From NCBI GenBank assembly GCA_022821735.1, contig JAJECZ010000012.1, positions 1 to 32,078 on the forward strand: 32,078 bases of DNA. The letters are read 5' to 3'. The stretch is from Alphaproteobacteria bacterium. GTDB taxonomy: Bacteria; Pseudomonadota; Alphaproteobacteria; Bin95. Positions 6,721 through 31,714 of this stretch are shown piece after piece. Both the position numbers and the translations under genes were made by a program. The notes under the pieces are model-generated. The model had not been told where the DNA came from. It searched no databases and saw only the letters and a program-made list of their open reading frames with translations. Each line of letters begins with the position of its first letter. The first letter of the stretch is position 1.

Positions 6721-7497
6721 ATGAGCTACGAACATATCCTGGTCGAAACCCGGGGGGCGGTCGGCATCGTCACCCTGAACCGCCCGGAAGCGCTGAATGC
6801 GCTCTGCGCGAAGCTGATTGAGGAGTTGGCCGGGGCGCTCGACGGCTTCGAGGCCGACGACGCCATCGGCTGCGTCGTGGTGACGGGCTCCGAGCGCGCC
6901 TTCGCCGCCGGGGCCGACATCAAGGAGATGCAGCCCAAGACCTATATGGACGCCTATCTGGAGGACTTCATCACCGTTGGCTGGGAGCGGGTGACGGGCT
7001 GCCGCAAGCCGGTGATCGCCGCGGTGGCGGGCTACGCGCTCGGCGGCGGCTGCGAGATGGCGATGATGTGCGATTTCATCATCGCCGCCGACACGGCGCG
7101 GTTCGGCCAGCCGGAGATCAACCTCGGCGCGCTGCCGGGTGGCGGCGGCACGCAGCGCCTCGCGCGCTTCATCGGCAAGTCGAAGACCATGGACATGTGC
7201 CTGACGGGCCGGATGATGGATGCGGCCGAGGCCGAGCGCGCCGGCCTGGTGAGCCGGGTGGTGCCGGCCGACGAGCTGATCGACAAGGCGGTCGAGGTTG
7301 CGGCGTCGATCGCGGCCAAGTCGCGTCCTGCCGCGATGATTACCAAGGAATGCGTCAACCGCGCCTACGAGATGCCGCTCTCCGAGGGGGTGAAGTTCGA
7401 GCGGCGCATGTTCCACTCGACCTTCGCGACCGAGGACCAGAAGGAAGGCATGGCCGCCTTCATCGAAAAGCGCGAGCCCGTCTTCAAGGGGCGGTAG
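6721..7497 (+). CDS. Enoyl-CoA hydratase/isomerase family protein
   Basis: [33 protein letters not shown]...AGADIKEM...[44 protein letters not shown] crotonase motifs; the longer upstream ORF extension is antisense to soxB. Confidence 0.94.
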
Positions 7498-7565
7498 GGC
7501 AGGCCTGAAGGCGGTCCCCGTTTCGCCTTCCGAACGACTGACTGCCATCCCGGTGGCTGGATATG

Positions 7566-7591
7566 CGAGGCGGGCTTCGCCGCCTCGTTTT
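7566..7591 (+). terminator. Rho-independent terminator after the enoyl-CoA hydratase gene
   Basis: CGAGGCGG-GCTTCG-CCGCCTCG, 8-bp perfect stem, followed by TTTT. Confidence 0.8.
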
Positions 7592-7596
7592 GCCTG

Positions 7597-7627
7597 TTGA
7601 CGAGGGTTTATAGAACATGTAAGGAAC
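7597..7627 (+). promoter_or_regulatory. Putative LexA/SOS-regulated promoter: TTGACG -35-like hexamer (7597-7602) with GAAC-N7-GAAC operator (7613-7627)
   Basis: Sequence ttgacgagggtttataGAACatgtaagGAACatt, 22 bp before the ATG at 7646(agtatgcATGg reading frame at 7646). Confidence 0.65.
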
Positions 7628-7645
7628 ATTAATCGGGGAGTATGC

Positions 7646-8383
7646 ATGGCGCAACAAACAGAAATCGAATGGACCGACGCGACCTGGAATCCGGTAACGG
7701 GCTGCACCCGTATTGGACCCGGATGCGACAACTGCTACGCGCTGCGATTCGCCGAGCGATGGCGCGGCATTCCCGAACACCCGTATGAGCAGGGTTTCGA
7801 TTTGCGGCTGTGGCCGGAACGACTCGACGTCCCGCTGAAGTGGCGCAGACCTCGAATGATCTTTGTCAACTCGATGAGTGACCTCTTTCACAAGAACGTG
7901 CCGGCCGATTTCATCGACTCTGTGTTCGACACTATGGAACGCGCAAGCCACCACACCTACCAAGTGCTCACCAAGCGATCCTCGCTCATGCGCACCTATA
8001 TCCGTCGTCGCTACGGGGAACGGATGGCTCCGGATCACATCTGGTTAGGGACGTCGATCGAGGACCGCAGCCGCCTGAACCGGTTGAACCACTTGCGCCA
8101 AACGCCAGTGACGGTCCGTTTCGTCTCCTTTGAGCCGTTGCTGGACGACATCGGACCGGTTGACCTGACCGGTATTGCCTGGGCCATTGTCGGCGGCGAA
8201 AGCGGCCCCGGCGCACGCCCCATGCATCCCGACTGGGCCCGCACCCTGCGGGATGCTTGTCGCAATCAAGGCGTCGCCTTCTTCTTCAAGCAATGGGGAG
8301 GCCGACATCCGAAGAGCGGGGGACGGCTCCTAGACGGCCGGACTTGGGACGGTTATCCGGCCTCGGAGCGCTTGGCTGCGTAA
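7646..8383 (+). CDS. Phage Gp37/Gp68-family (DUF5131) protein, three-Cys motif
   Basis: MAQQTEIEWTDATWNPVTGCTRIGPGCDNCYALRFAERWRGIP...MIFVNSMSDLFHKNVP...VGGESGPGARPMHPDWARTLRDACRNQGVAFFFKQWGG, the family signature with C-x6-C-x2-C. Confidence 0.93.
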   Translation: MAQQTEIEWTDATWNPVTGCTRIGPGCDNCYALRFAERWRGIPEHPYEQGFDLRLWPERLDVPLKWRRPRMIFVNSMSDLFHKNVPADFIDSVFDTMERASHHTYQVLTKRSSLMRTYIRRRYGERMAPDHIWLGTSIEDRSRLNRLNHLRQTPVTVRFVSFEPLLDDIGPVDLTGIAWAIVGGESGPGARPMHPDWARTLRDACRNQGVAFFFKQWGGRHPKSGGRLLDGRTWDGYPASERLAA

Positions 8384-8390
8384 CATTTCT

Positions 8391-9233
8391 TCACAGATGA
8401 TCCAGAATGTGATTTGCGGCCCGAGACGCGAGACCTATACCCCTTTCATTTCCGACACAGAAAAGAAACTCGAACAAAGGGGAATTGCGGGAATTTGTCA
8501 GCCTTCTGGATTTGCGCAAGAATCGACTCCCAAATAACAATTCCAGTTTTTTCTTGTACGCCTCGATCAATCCTTGAACGCCTTGCTCTCTTTGATGTCC
8601 GCTGGATCCAAACAAGTTACCTTGTGGGTTAATCCGATAAAGTTCTCTCCAGCTGTCGTCTCCATAGATACGGTCCAGTCGATCTGCCCAACGGGAATTG
8701 ATTTCTTCCGGTTTTTGTTCCGTGGGAAGCAGTCTTGCAATTGCTTGTGTGGGGAACAGTATCCACATGTCCAGGGCATTGAAATTCTCTATTGTCTCGA
8801 TTGTCAACCACGAAACTTCAGTTGCGAATGGATCAAGAAAGAGGACGCCGCGCCATTGTTTCCAGTCCTGCTTGAAGTTTTTCAGAAAATCATTTGCATC
8901 GGCGTTTTCAATTTGAATGTCCCGATTAGGGAATTCTCTGCGAATATTCCGCAGCGCCGCATATCTGTTCATATTTCGTTCAATGAAGATCAATTTATCG
9001 AAAGGCTTGTCCGATATGTTGATAGCCCTGCGCGTTGATCCGGATATGAATTGTTGTGCCTCCTCTTCGTCTGTCTGAATAGCCCCGGAGCCCGCAAACG
9101 CATCGATATAGAGCAGCTTGAAGGGCTGGTTCTTCAGGGCCGTGGTATAAAAGTCCAGATACAATTCGAGTATCTCGAGTTTTTCTTCGGTCCAAGGTCC
9201 GCCAAATGCATTTGTCATTTCTCTATTCGCCAT
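8391..9233 (-). CDS. Three-Cys-motif partner protein TcmP-like (putative SAM-dependent methyltransferase fold)
   Basis: PWTEEKLEILELYLDFYTTALK...LLYIDAFAGSGA (MTase motif I-like), VLFLDPFATEVSW (motif IV-like), FEFLFCVGNERGIGLASRAANHIL; pairs with DUF5131 as known for this family; ATG at 9233. Confidence 0.85.
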   Translation of the reverse strand: MANREMTNAFGGPWTEEKLEILELYLDFYTTALKNQPFKLLYIDAFAGSGAIQTDEEEAQQFISGSTRRAINISDKPFDKLIFIERNMNRYAALRNIRREFPNRDIQIENADANDFLKNFKQDWKQWRGVLFLDPFATEVSWLTIETIENFNALDMWILFPTQAIARLLPTEQKPEEINSRWADRLDRIYGDDSWRELYRINPQGNLFGSSGHQREQGVQGLIEAYKKKLELLFGSRFLRKSRRLTNSRNSPLFEFLFCVGNERGIGLASRAANHILDHL

Positions 9234-9313
9234 CAAGCTTCGATTGAATTAGTGTTTCCGATAAGGCTGCCGTCAATCGCGGCCGGCAAGAGAGCGGAAT
9301 GGACGACGCCGGT

Positions 9314-10981
9314 TCAGGAACCGGGCAGGGCGCGGGAGAGGATGGTTTCCGTGTCCGTGCCGGGCGGCAGGGCGCCGTAGGAGCCGGTCCAGCGGTCGCC
9401 CAGCCGGCTGGCGCAGAAGGCGTCGGCGACCGCTTGCGGCGCGTGGCGGGCGAGCAGGGAGGCCTGCAGGGCCAACGCCATCCGCTCGGTGAGCGCGCGG
9501 GCGCCGGACTCGAACTCTTCCGGCCTTGAGAGGTCGTCCCGGAGCGCGTCGGCCGCCCGGTCGAGCGCCGGATGCGCGCCGCGCGCGGCGTCGAGTTCGG
9601 CGAGCACGGCCGGCACCGCCTCCTCCTCGCGGGCCATGGCGCGCAGCACGTCGAGGCAGAGCACGTTGCCCGAGCCTTCCCAGATGCTGTTGAGCGGCGC
9701 TTCCCTATAGAGTCGGGCCATCGGCCCATCCTCGATGTAGCCGGGGCCGCCATGGCACTCCAGCGCCTCGAACGCATGGCCCGGCGCCCGCTTGCAGACC
9801 CAGTATTTCGCAACCGCCGTGCCGATGCGCGCCAACGCCCGCGCCTCCGGGCCGTCCCCGGCTTCGTCCACGGCGCGGGCGGTCCTGAGGCCGAGCGCCA
9901 GCGCCGCCTCTGCCTCCAGCGCAAGGTCGGCCAGCACGTTGCGCATCAGCGGCTGGTCGGCGAGCCGGCGCTGGAAGGCGCTGCGGTGGCGGGTGTGGTG
10001 AAGCGCCTGCGCGACGCCCTCGCGCATGATCGCCGCGGAGCTGACCGCGCAGTAGAGCCGGTTGCCCTGCACCATGTCGATGATGGTGCGGATGCCGCGC
10101 CCGTCCTCGCCGACCATGACGGCCCAGGCGTCCTCCAGCTCGATCTCGACGGAGGCGTTGGAGCGGTTGCCGAGCTTGTCCTTGAGATGCTGGACCGAGA
10201 TGGCGTTGCGCTCGCCGTCCGGGGTCCAGCGCGGCAGCAGGAAGCAGGAAATGCCGGCATCGGTCCGGGCGAGCGTCAGGAAGGCGTCGGACATCGGCGC
10301 GGAGCAGAAATATTTGTGCCCGGTGAGCCGCCAGGCGCCGTCCGCACCACCGTCCGCCGGCCGCGCTACGGTCGAGTTGGAGCGGACGTCGGACCCGCCC
10401 TGCTTCTCGGTCATGAACATGCCGATGGTGGCGCCGGGCTTGTGCTCCACCGGCACGTCGCGCCCGTCATAGCGGTTCGACAGCAGGCGCGGGATCCAGG
10501 CTTCGGCGATTTCCGGCGAGGCGTTGAGCGCGGGGACCGCCGCATAGGTCATCGCCATCGGGCACATCGCGCCGCCTTCCACCTGGCTGAACAGGTAGGT
10601 CAGCGCCATGTGGCCGACATGCGCGCCCGGCCCGGCATGGTTCCAGGCGAAGCTCGCAACCTCGTTCCCGACCGCGAACGCCACCAGGTCGTGATAGGCG
10701 GGGTGGTATTCGACCCGGTCGATCCGCATGCCGTAGCGGTCGAAGGACCTCAGCTCCGGGCCGTGGCGGTTGGCCTGTTCGGCCTTCTCCGCCACTTCGG
10801 TGCGGCCGACCAGGCGCCCGAAGCCGGCGATGCGCTCCTCCGCCCAGGCCGCTCCCTCGCGCCGCACGCCTTCGCGAAGTGCCGTGTCCTCTGCCCAGAG
10901 GTCCCGGTCGCCCATGTGCGGCGGCATGTTGAAGACCTCATGCGTCGCCAGCGCCGCGCGCGGCCTGAGCGGAGCCGTCAA
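9314..10981 (-). CDS. aidB: AidB-like acyl-CoA dehydrogenase (TTG start proposed)
   Basis: [10 protein letters not shown]...[17 protein letters not shown] aligns by eye with the AidB N-terminus; [77 protein letters not shown] at 10981 overlaps the cobT stop (TTGA). Confidence 0.85.
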
Positions 10982-29080: not shown

Positions 29081-31252
29081 TTACGCTTGGGATTCGCGCT
29101 GTATAGAGGAAAAGAGCTGCCTGGCCTCCATGCGCTGCTCTTCCAAGAGAGACTCATTATACCGCAATTCGCCCAATCGCATTTCCACAGCATCCACCGA
29201 TCCAAAAAACACTTCCAATGTTTGCCTTGCAAGATAGTAGTCTTCTCTGGTTCCATTTCCATAGGAAATCGATTGTTTGCTCATCATGCGGCTGAGAAGG
29301 TCAATAAAGTCTGTATTACTTGACGATTGCCCCTGCGCCCACGCCTTCGCCCCTCCGCCAGCCCAATGCCATTCGTACATCAGGCTCAGGAAAAACGGGG
29401 TTTCCTTGAGGTCCACCGCATCGGTTCGTTCCAGCCTTTCCAGAAACGCTATCCTGACGCACTCGAATTCCTCCTCGGTCAGAAGCCGTTGTTCGACCGG
29501 TTCCGCCCGATGACCGGCGAATCCGTGTTCGACAATTGCGTCCCTGACTATAGCAGTCAACCAAGCCAGAGACGCCGCGTTTGCAAAGAGTTCCTTCAGC
29601 ATCGGCAGCCTATCACTGGCATCCAGACGCTCGATCAACCAGAATATTTCCCGCGCGTCGCCATACAACCTTGGAGGGCTTCCCGGCCGCTCGGGCAGCC
29701 GTCGGGCGAAATCGTCCATGCCGTCGCCCAGCACCGCAAACAGGTCCGGTATCCGGTGTGGAGCAATGTCTTCCTTGCACTCCAGGACGCGGGAGAGGAG
29801 CGCTTGGGCCATGTTGCCGCCTTGCGGGCGGGTCTCCGCGCAGCGGTCCCGAAATTGGCGAACAGCCTCTTCCCGGTCCCGCGAGCACGCTTCGAGAAAA
29901 TCTGATACCTCCTCGTCAGTCAAAAAGCCGGCGGGCAGAGACAGGGCGAAATACAAGCGGAAGTAGTTGCGGCTGTATAGCCGGTGCTCGAAAGCGAACT
30001 CCCGCCACGCGCCAGCATCGTAGTGCTGTGGCGGGCGGCTATTCGGGATAGAGACTTGTGGCAAATGTACTCGCAGGTCGTCGAGAAGTTGAAGCCGCGC
30101 GTGACCCTGCTTTCCGATAATTTCGTCAAGTGTGGACTCTTCTGCGCCGTCGCCGTCTTCTGCCGCATCCTTCGAAGCGAGATGACGGTCGTTGGGGTCC
30201 GAGCCGAATTTCTTCATGAGGTAACGTTGGACCCAGTTATGGAGCTGCGGGCGGTGGAGTCGAATCACCTGGATGAACAGTCCGTCAGCTGGGTCCAATC
30301 GGTCTGCCAGAGGCGCAACATGTAACTTCAAGGCGTTGGCGGCCCTAACGACGTCTCGCGGTGTCGAGATATGTTCCGAGCACCAGCAGCTTAGCGCACG
30401 TTCGAGGCGATCATCAGCTTCGGGAGTCAAGTTTGCGTGGTCGAAGATCGCCCTAGTTTCCTCCGCAAGCCGTGACCGTAAATCAAAACCCATAGGCTCT
30501 GGAATTGCGAATGATGCTTGAACGATTTTCTCGATATACGCTTTGCCGTCTTGGGCACCGAGTGCCTTTTGCAGATATTTGGCTAAGTTATTGGGGTCGT
30601 AGGCGAGAAGGTATCCGACATTCGGAAAATCGGCGACGGCGCGCACTAGGCGCAGGACTTCAACGGCTTCATCGGGCTCCAGTCGGTCTATGTCGTCGAT
30701 GAAGACGACGACGGGACGCGGGAGCGATTGGAAGTGTCGGCGGAGGCCTTGGTTGAGGGTGGCGAGGGAGGGCGCGGCTGCGTTTGAAGCCGCGGAAGCT
30801 GAGTGTTTGAGGGCTTGGGAGACCGCCCCCGCGACGGGCAGGCCGGCAGCGGCGGCTATGTCGCCTGCCGCTGCGAGAGCGGATGCAGAGTTGGCGTAGC
30901 GGCGAAGCAGAGTGCGGGCCGAACGCCTGCCGGCAGCCGGAAAGGAGTTGTAAAGAACCTTGTCGAATTCGAGGAACAATTCCCGGAGGAGCTCGGACCG
31001 GTTCCCGACAATCCAGGGAGAGAAGCGGACGATATTTGGCGCATTATCCGATTTGCCCAGCATGTCGAGCGCGAGGTTTGCTAAAGAAGATTTCCCGGAC
31101 CCCCATTCGCCCTCTATGCCGACGACCAGGCCGCCTGAAAGGTCGTTGCGAAGGAAGGCTCCCGCCAGATGGCGGGCGAGTTCGCCGAAGCCCAGCCAGT
31201 CCTGTCCGGGTTCCGTAATCGGGGCGTCGTTGTTCAGCTTGGCGTCGTCCAT
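29081..31252 (-). CDS. KAP family P-loop NTPase
   Basis: APITEPGQDWLGFGELARHLAGAFLRNDLSGGLVVGIEGEWGSGKSSLANLAL (Walker A), RPVVVFIDDIDRLEPDEAVEVLRLVRAVADFPNVGYLLAYDPNNLAKYL (Walker B, KAP signature); ATG at 31252. Confidence 0.9.
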   Translation of the reverse strand: MDDAKLNNDAPITEPGQDWLGFGELARHLAGAFLRNDLSGGLVVGIEGEWGSGKSSLANLALDMLGKSDNAPNIVRFSPWIVGNRSELLRELFLEFDKVLYNSFPAAGRRSARTLLRRYANSASALAAAGDIAAAAGLPVAGAVSQALKHSASAASNAAAPSLATLNQGLRRHFQSLPRPVVVFIDDIDRLEPDEAVEVLRLVRAVADFPNVGYLLAYDPNNLAKYLQKALGAQDGKAYIEKIVQASFAIPEPMGFDLRSRLAEETRAIFDHANLTPEADDRLERALSCWCSEHISTPRDVVRAANALKLHVAPLADRLDPADGLFIQVIRLHRPQLHNWVQRYLMKKFGSDPNDRHLASKDAAEDGDGAEESTLDEIIGKQGHARLQLLDDLRVHLPQVSIPNSRPPQHYDAGAWREFAFEHRLYSRNYFRLYFALSLPAGFLTDEEVSDFLEACSRDREEAVRQFRDRCAETRPQGGNMAQALLSRVLECKEDIAPHRIPDLFAVLGDGMDDFARRLPERPGSPPRLYGDAREIFWLIERLDASDRLPMLKELFANAASLAWLTAIVRDAIVEHGFAGHRAEPVEQRLLTEEEFECVRIAFLERLERTDAVDLKETPFFLSLMYEWHWAGGGAKAWAQGQSSSNTDFIDLLSRMMSKQSISYGNGTREDYYLARQTLEVFFGSVDAVEMRLGELRYNESLLEEQRMEARQLFSSIQRESQA

Positions 31253-31371
31253 GATGGCACTCGGTCGGGATCGGCGGGCGAGAATGACGGTGGTGGCGGG
31301 GCCGGGCAAGCGGGCGGCCGTAAATGGAGGGGTGGGGACGAAGAAATTCGAAAAATGTTCTGTATTTGATC

Positions 31372-31400
31372 TTGACATCCGGCTGTCCGTGGCAGATATA
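31372..31400 (+). promoter_or_regulatory. Strong candidate sigma70-type promoter directed away from the KAP gene
   Basis: TTGACA - 17 nt - GATATA. Confidence 0.55.
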
Positions 31401-31714
31401 GGGCGGGAGGGAGTGGTATCCGGAGGCCGCTTTGCCTGGCATCGGTGCGAAAAGACCCCGGCGGCACGGGCAGGGGAGGTACGCCCTGCGTCTGCCTTGC
31501 GCGCGCGGGCGCAATCAGGCGCGCGAGCCGCGCCGGCGCCGACGCGCGCGGACGGGCGCGCGATACGCGCGAAACAGGGTCCCGCCGCACGGTCCGGCCG
31601 GCGGCGGCGCGAACGGAAGGAGGCGAGCGGGATGCGGTGGAGCAGAGACATGCAGGAATCGGGACGACAGGGCCCCCGCAAAGGGGGCGGAGAGCGGGGC
31701 GGCGCAGGAGGCCG

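What the first reader, a model, noticed from the sequence alone, without database searches (positions are those of the whole stretch)
7597..7646. Perfect GAAC-N7-GAAC (alphaproteobacterial SOS box) in front of a DUF5131/Gp37-Gp68 gene
The region between the terminator at 7566-7591 and the DUF5131 start carries TTGACG then GAACatgtaagGAAC (7613-7627). This is the direct-repeat LexA operator known for Alphaproteobacteria (GTTCN7GTTC or its complement), just downstream of a -35-like element where a repressor would block transcription. A rough composition estimate gives about 0.5-1 such match per 32 kb by chance but well under 0.01 in a gap this short. It suggests the uncharacterised DUF5131 protein is DNA-damage inducible.
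Basis: partly seen in the sequence, partly recalled or inferred. Interest (0 to 1): 0.82.

Follow-up and report, generated by a model that had tools for sequence, protein, structure and literature searches.

The report
DNA-damage switch on mobile enzyme gene
A short DNA signal that alphaproteobacteria use to switch genes on when their DNA is damaged sits in front of an uncharacterised gene that travels between genomes with a methyltransferase-like partner, and related bacteria keep the same signal in the same place, so this probable phage-defence or DNA-repair pair is very likely part of the DNA-damage response.

Summary
In detail: GAACATGTAAGGAAC lies at 7613-7627, 18 nt before the ATG (7646) of a DUF5131 gene. 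About 0.8 such matches are expected per window by chance, but only about 0.0013 in this 54-nt gap. The host genome uses this operator: lexA carries GAAC[CT]AAT[AG]TAGAAC in all eight genomes of the genus, recA has a one-mismatch version, and the SOS peptidase SRAP has a perfect one.

Comparative genomics supports the interpretation. Among 55 other alphaproteobacterial DUF5131 genes (at least 60% identical), 26 have an exact repeat within 150 nt of the start. None has the reversed pattern and shuffles give 0.24. Density 15-80 nt before the start is 285 times that of the rest of the same loci. In two alphaproteobacterial operons where tcmP comes first, the box precedes tcmP instead.

In the window the box, DUF5131 and a convergent tcmP form a roughly 1.8-kb low-GC insertion absent from four congeners. 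The DUF5131 model most resembles spore photoproduct lyase (below significance); TcmP has the RlmJ methyltransferase fold. PADLOC lists the pair as candidate defence system PDC-M41. I found no paper linking DUF5131 or TcmP to SOS. It is a new SOS-regulon member; induction is unproven experimentally and the enzymes' substrate is unknown.

The parts
7554..9311 (.). Inserted low-GC islet (approximate ends) carrying terminator, operator, DUF5131 gene and tcmP
   Evidence: Four congeners (G002, G003, G004, G006) have the flanking genes end to end with about 25 bp between stops; the window and G005 have about 1.8 kb there. GC is 0.44-0.63 inside against about 0.70 outside.
7569..7591 (+). Terminator-like hairpin with T-rich tail upstream of the operator
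   Evidence: pattern match only.
7597..7602 (+). Plausible -35 element TTGACG; no strong -10 identified (TAAGGA at 7620-7625 at spacing 17)
   Evidence: Sequence; not reported by the sigma-70 scan. The same genome's lexA promoter has TTGACA 8 nt before its box.
7613..7627 (+). LexA operator (SOS box), GAAC-N7-GAAC direct repeat
   Evidence: own lexA, recA and SRAP boxes; conservation upstream of DUF5131 in alphaproteobacteria.
7635..7640 (+). Ribosome-binding-site-like GGGGAG
   Evidence: Sequence.
7646..8383 (+). DUF5131 (PF07505, 'phage Gp37/Gp68 family') gene, 245 aa, invariant C-X6-C-X2-C
   Evidence: PF07505 E=2e-98; PADLOC PDC-M41B E=7e-100; weak NCBIfam rSAM_mob_pairA, below cut-off; invariant C20, C27, C30 in 43 relatives; structure model.
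8391..9233 (-). tcmP, three-Cys-motif partner protein, convergent with DUF5131 (7 nt between stops), with its own box-less promoter region
   Evidence: TIGR04474 E=1.8e-48; PDC-M41A E=2.6e-75; RlmJ-like fold; no box within 250 nt upstream.
8967..8981 (-). Second GAAC-N7-GAAC match inside the tcmP coding sequence, judged coincidental
   Evidence: the sister genome's copy is in 96%-identical coding sequence.
6736..7497 (+). Left flank: enoyl-CoA hydratase (not part of the module)
   Evidence: PF00378 E=3e-85.
9314..10960 (-). Right flank: AidB-like acyl-CoA dehydrogenase (not part of the module)
   Evidence: PF18158 AidB_N E=1.5e-58.

Best explanation
The repeat at 7613-7627 is a LexA operator. 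In undamaged cells LexA sits on it between the -35 region and the ribosome-binding site and blocks transcription of DUF5131. DNA damage, or phage or mobile-element entry, activates RecA; LexA cleaves itself; DUF5131 is made. DUF5131 is most likely an iron-sulphur, radical-SAM-like enzyme acting on nucleic acid together with TcmP, a protein with the fold of the N6-adenine methyltransferase RlmJ. The two genes form a small horizontally transferred module, probably for defence and less probably for lesion repair. Shown by computation: the box, use of this motif by the host lexA, conservation in front of the module, the islet, the TcmP fold. Inferred: LexA binding, induction, enzyme chemistry, biological role. 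In this genome only DUF5131, not the convergent tcmP, is under the box. The confidence given is for the regulatory claim; I put the defence role at about 0.5.
For: Own-genome motif use: 95 GAAC-N7-GAAC against 40 for the reversed control (some are repeat copies); lexA box in 8 of 8 genomes of the genus; SRAP box; recA one-mismatch box. Conservation: 26 of 55 exact and 39 of 55 with at most one mismatch, reversed control 0, shuffles 0.24; 24 sites in 3,498 bp upstream against 8 in 332,552 bp elsewhere in the same loci. Box moved to tcmP in two alphaproteobacterial tcmP-first operons, L176 and L218. Canonical gammaproteobacterial LexA palindrome TACTGTTATTATATACAGTA at -67 in one gammaproteobacterial relative, L100, and TTCGAACAAGGGTTCGA, the actinobacterial type, at -32 on a Rhodococcus plasmid, L247. 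Module: TcmP adjacent; islet with empty sites; patchy, 54 of 387 genomes; on plasmids and phages.
Against: No expression or binding data. Within the genus the exact box is only in the window and its sister; other copies have one mismatch and G007 has no convincing box. 29 of 55 orthologues lack an exact box, notably Rhodobacterales. Alphaproteobacterial copies under 60% identity have it in only 4 of 46. Outside alphaproteobacteria the group-specific boxes are single cases: 1 of 5 named gammaproteobacterial copies and 1 of 11 actinobacterial plasmids. The -10 of the window promoter is weak. The spore photoproduct lyase match has E=0.02, above the 0.001 line.
Confidence: 0.86

Rival explanations
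1. The enzyme pair repairs or tolerates DNA lesions directly: DUF5131 is a spore-photoproduct-lyase-like radical SAM repair enzyme and SOS control is an ordinary repair-gene control.
For: Best PDB structural neighbours by Foldseek are spore photoproduct lyase entries (4fhg prob 0.99, TMq 0.54; also 4fhc, 4fhf, 4fhe, 4rh0, 4k9r). Spore photoproduct lyase (splB) was predicted to be LexA-regulated in alpha- and betaproteobacteria (PMC3323433) and SplB-like genes are tied to SOS modules (PMC3765255).
Against: Foldseek E=0.02, no match under 0.001, and other TIM barrels score close behind. DUF5131 has C-X6-C-X2-C instead of the canonical radical SAM C-X3-C-X2-C. The patchy, plasmid- and phage-borne, islet-like distribution and the MTase-fold partner fit a mobile cargo better.
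Confidence: 0.3
2. The module is an anti-phage defence system (PADLOC candidate PDC-M41) whose trigger is the SOS signal raised by phage infection.
For: PDC-M41A and M41B profiles match TcmP and DUF5131 at E=2.6e-75 and 7e-100. Patchy distribution, islet insertion, plasmid and phage carriage. Neighbours in other records include Abi, McrC and DEAD/DEAH helicase genes.
Against: PDC entries are candidates, not tested systems. No paper found in the held library tests DUF5131 or TcmP against phage. Temperate phages themselves carry the pair.
Confidence: 0.5
3. The repeat is a chance match and the promoter is unregulated by LexA.
For: About 0.8 matches per window are expected, and a second, coding match lies 1.3 kb away. 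Spacer sequence differs from the lexA boxes.
Against: Expected 0.0013 in this gap; 24 boxes against 0.08 expected in the same interval of relatives (relatives are not fully independent, so the Poisson P of 2e-50 overstates it).
Confidence: 0.05
4. The box binds another repressor of the LexA/CI (S24) type encoded by a mobile element, not the chromosomal LexA.
For: On a Comamonas plasmid an S24 peptidase gene overlaps the DUF5131 gene, and a Gordonia temperate phage has the pair beside its immunity repressor.
Against: No S24 gene lies in this islet; the motif equals that of the host's own lexA promoter.
Confidence: 0.06

Closest known systems
Alphaproteobacterial SOS regulon (LexA, GTTC-N7-GTTC direct repeat; PMC3323433 and references therein)
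   Same: Same 8 core bases and spacing, in promoter position, in a genome whose lexA carries the same motif.
   Different: DUF5131/TcmP is not among the regulon members named in the papers read here; it is accessory and mobile rather than core.
SOS-regulated splB / spore photoproduct lyase (PMC3323433)
   Same: A radical-SAM-type gene under LexA in alphaproteobacteria; best structural neighbour of the DUF5131 model.
   Different: Different family (PF07505), shorter (245 aa against about 340), different cysteine spacing, paired with TcmP.
PADLOC candidate system PDC-M41 (A = TcmP, B = DUF5131)
   Same: Both components present and adjacent.
   Different: The PADLOC entry says nothing of regulation; here the first gene has an SOS box and the two genes are convergent.
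RlmJ, 23S rRNA A2030 N6-methyltransferase
   Same: TcmP model matches RlmJ chains at E about 1e-6 to 1e-7.
   Different: About 12-15% identity; the motif-IV region reads DPF(G) in the TcmP consensus, not the DPPY of N6-adenine methyltransferases (motif from my own knowledge).

Membership tests
Alphaproteobacterial LexA operator | Two GTTC (or GAAC) half-sites 7 nt apart | tested here: met
Alphaproteobacterial LexA operator | The genome's own LexA uses this motif (autoregulated lexA) | tested here: met
   lexA promoter box in 8 of 8 genomes of the genus.
Alphaproteobacterial LexA operator | Promoter-proximal position conserved upstream of orthologues | tested here: met
   26 of 55 exact, reversed control 0; 285-fold positional enrichment.
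Alphaproteobacterial LexA operator | LexA binding and RecA/LexA-dependent induction | not testable with these tools
   Needs EMSA/ChIP and mitomycin C expression data.
DUF5131 (PF07505) | Full-length profile match above the curated cut-off | tested here: met
   329 bits against 28.9.
TcmP (TIGR04474) | Profile match above the curated cut-off next to a three-Cys protein | tested here: met
   165.8 bits against 53.
PDC-M41 candidate defence system | Both A and B components adjacent | tested here: met
PDC-M41 candidate defence system | Protection against phage | not testable with these tools
   No assay; the family itself is a candidate.
Radical SAM superfamily | Canonical C-X3-C-X2-C cluster motif | tested here: not met
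   Invariant C20, C27, C30 give C-X6-C-X2-C.
Radical SAM superfamily | Partial TIM-barrel fold with a radical SAM enzyme as closest fold | tested here: inconclusive
   Top match spore photoproduct lyase, prob 0.99 but E=0.022.
N6-adenine methyltransferase (RlmJ-like) | Rossmann-type MTase fold closest to RlmJ | tested here: met
   E 1.7e-7 to 1e-6 to LPL1258 and RlmJ chains.
N6-adenine methyltransferase (RlmJ-like) | Catalytic motif IV (D/N)PP(Y/F/W) | tested here: not met
   Consensus LDPFG; D133 and P134 invariant, second proline absent.

The most novel reading that the evidence does not exclude
DUF5131-TcmP is an SOS-triggered, horizontally moving two-enzyme system acting on nucleic acid (defence or repair) whose operator is re-made for each host's LexA: GTTC-N7-GTTC in alphaproteobacteria, TACTG-N10-CAGTA in a gammaproteobacterium, TCGAAC-N4-GTTCGA in a Rhodococcus. 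In convergent forms such as this window, damage also shifts the DUF5131:TcmP ratio, because only DUF5131 is induced and its read-through would run antisense to tcmP.
Probability: 0.25. Interest if true: 0.8.

Novelty: new member of a known kind. Interest (0 to 1): 0.56.

Why it matters
DUF5131 and TcmP are widespread, uncharacterised and carried on plasmids, phages and chromosomal islets; only four papers in a 5.4-million-paper library hold any of five DUF5131/TcmP name or accession terms searched. A conserved LexA operator says when the pair is needed: during DNA damage or invasion. That turns an open function into a testable one (induce with mitomycin C, delete, challenge with UV or phage) and adds a probable mobile accessory gene to the alphaproteobacterial SOS response.

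Tried and rejected
The GAAC-N7-GAAC at 8967-8981 as an operator for tcmP: rejected, it is internal to the coding sequence. A box in front of the convergent tcmP of the window: none, even with one mismatch. A family-wide SOS link for DUF5131: rejected; copies under 60% identity are at 4 of 46 in alphaproteobacteria and 0 of 36 elsewhere. Gammaproteobacterial boxes in gamma/other Pseudomonadota copies drawn by the genome search: none exact. Actinobacterial boxes: one of 11 plasmid copies close to the gene. Sequence search for a solved relative: none for DUF5131 and only E=0.11 for TcmP. Two papers naming TcmP only list it in tables. The Streptomyces venezuelae LexA paper lists a radical SAM protein with a LexA site and induction by mitomycin C, but I did not establish its family.

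Full report
Observation. The sequence is as described: TTGACG 7597-7602, GAACATGTAAGGAAC 7613-7627, GGGGAG 7635-7640, ATG 7646. Two exact GAAC-N7-GAAC matches occur in the window against a shuffle mean of 0.82, so a match somewhere is unremarkable. A match in the 54 nt between the terminator-like hairpin and the start codon has an expected count of about 0.0013 at the genome's own density. The gene is DUF5131, PF07505, E=2e-98.

Does this genome use the motif? Yes. The only strong LexA gene (PF01726 plus Peptidase_S24) has GAACCAATGTAGAAC 8 nt after a TTGACA element. All eight genomes of the genus have GAAC[CT]AAT[AG]TAGAAC there, in the same GAAC orientation as the window site. The SRAP gene, a standard SOS gene, has GAACAATAGAAGAAC about 40 nt upstream. 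recA has GTTCTTGAAATATTC, one mismatch. The pattern occurs 95 times in the genome against 40 for its reversal; some of the excess is repeat copies, e.g. GAACGCCAGCGGAAC seven times.

Is it conserved in front of DUF5131? I collected 161 DUF5131 genes with readable upstream regions from 80 named genome contigs, an even draw of 387 genomes of the class, 399 of the phylum and the order, placed starts with a profile and deduplicated upstream regions. The window's class is Alphaproteobacteria: a 'same class' genome (L208) carries the same DUF5131 and upstream region as Rhabdaerophilum calidifontis (L078). Among 55 alphaproteobacterial genes at least 60% identical to the window's (window and sister excluded), 26 have an exact box within 150 nt and 24 within 80 nt, mostly at -25 to -31; 39 have one with at most one mismatch. 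The reversed pattern scores 0 and shuffles average 0.24. In these loci 24 boxes fall in 3,498 bp of upstream positions against 8 in 332,552 bp elsewhere, 285-fold. The relatives are not independent, so the P value (2e-50) is only indicative; on a quick tree the exact box changes state at least 16 times. Carriers include Bradyrhizobium sp. DOA9, Xanthobacter, Sphingomonas, Sphingobium, Caulobacteraceae, Methylocystis and Acetobacteraceae.

Within the genus the sister genome G005 has the identical box. Four more distant copies (about 65% identical proteins) have GAACAAAGAAGGAAT, GAACAAAAGAGAAAC or GAACAAACAAGAAAC at -42 to -49, and G007 has no convincing box. The recA box of this genome also has one mismatch, so these may still bind, but that is inference.

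The box follows the module. In two alphaproteobacterial operons with tcmP first (L176, L218) an exact box stands before tcmP. Outside alphaproteobacteria there are isolated cases with the local LexA motif: TACTGTTATTATATACAGTA at -67 in a gammaproteobacterial MAG (L100) and TTCGAACAAGGGTTCGA at -32 on a Rhodococcus plasmid (L247). These are 1 of 5 named gammaproteobacterial and 1 of 11 actinobacterial copies, so I treat them as suggestive only.

The module. Next to DUF5131, convergent with 7 nt between stops, is tcmP (TIGR04474 E=1.8e-48). PADLOC calls the two PDC-M41B and PDC-M41A. In most alphaproteobacterial relatives where tcmP was found it follows DUF5131 on the same strand, while the actinobacterial plasmid copies are mostly convergent, as here. 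In G002, G003, G004 and G006 the flanking enoyl-CoA hydratase and AidB-like genes end about 25 bp apart; the window and G005 have about 1.8 kb of lower-GC DNA between them holding just this pair. DUF5131 is in 54 of 387 genomes of the class, 429 plasmid records and 161 phage records. This is the pattern of mobile cargo.

Likely chemistry. DUF5131 has invariant C20, C27, C30 (C-X6-C-X2-C) and a conserved FFFKQWGG segment. Its model (pLDDT 86.9) has spore photoproduct lyase as the top PDB match (prob 0.99, TMq 0.54, E=0.022), with five more such entries in the top 50, but nothing reaches E=0.001. TcmP's model (pLDDT 83.4) matches RlmJ, an N6-adenine RNA methyltransferase, at E about 1e-7, although its motif IV reads DPF rather than DPPY. 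A radical-SAM-like enzyme plus a nucleic-acid methyltransferase relative is the most economical reading; the substrate is unknown.

Mechanism. Most likely LexA represses DUF5131 from a box between the -35 region and the ribosome-binding site, and RecA-stimulated LexA cleavage releases it. In this genome only DUF5131 is under the box. Shown: box, motif use by lexA, conservation, islet, TcmP fold. Inferred: binding, induction, chemistry, role.

Known or new. A radical SAM gene under SOS control has precedent: splB in alpha- and betaproteobacteria (PMC3323433). Searches of the held literature found no paper linking DUF5131 or TcmP with SOS; subscription papers and supplements are not covered, so a listing in some regulon table cannot be excluded. 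I call it a new member of a known kind.

Noticed in passing
L031 1440-1600, L033 1450-1560, L035 1450-1600, L039 1420-1560, L040 1450-1600 (own genome contigs C232, C252, C321, C401, C451): Five similar promoters with a TTGAC(A/T/G)-type -35 and GTTCTATATA(A/T)GTTCC (GTTCCTATTTTGTTCC in L039) over the -10, followed by a mini-ORF such as ATGACCTGA; three precede transposase-like helix-turn-helix genes. Possibly a family of SOS-controlled genes or elements.
   Followed up: partly
L051 and L224-L230, between the lexA box and the lexA start: A second conserved element GGTTCGTNNNNGGAACAT (GTTC-N7-GAAC) lies between the LexA box and the start of lexA in all eight genomes of the genus; its right half resembles TAAGGAACATT of the DUF5131 promoter.
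   Followed up: no
window 29081-31561: KAP P-loop NTPase matching the PADLOC PifA profile at E=6e-158, a phage-exclusion candidate in the same window.
   Followed up: no
window 9314-10960: The islet is inserted next to an AidB-like gene (adaptive response to alkylation); AidB_N E=1.5e-58.
   Followed up: no
L243 866-2286: On a Comamonas plasmid an S24 (LexA/CI-like) peptidase gene overlaps the start of DUF5131, as if the module carried its own damage-sensing repressor.
   Followed up: partly
L258 1492-3729: Gordonia temperate phage Fairfaxidum carries DUF5131 and a convergent tcmP-position methyltransferase between integrase and immunity repressor.
   Followed up: no
L071, L074, L077, L082, upstream of DUF5131: Several Rhodobacteraceae-type copies share GTTC[GC][CT]GCTTTGTGC-like sites (one mismatch) about 54-62 nt before the start, perhaps a local LexA variant.
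   Followed up: no
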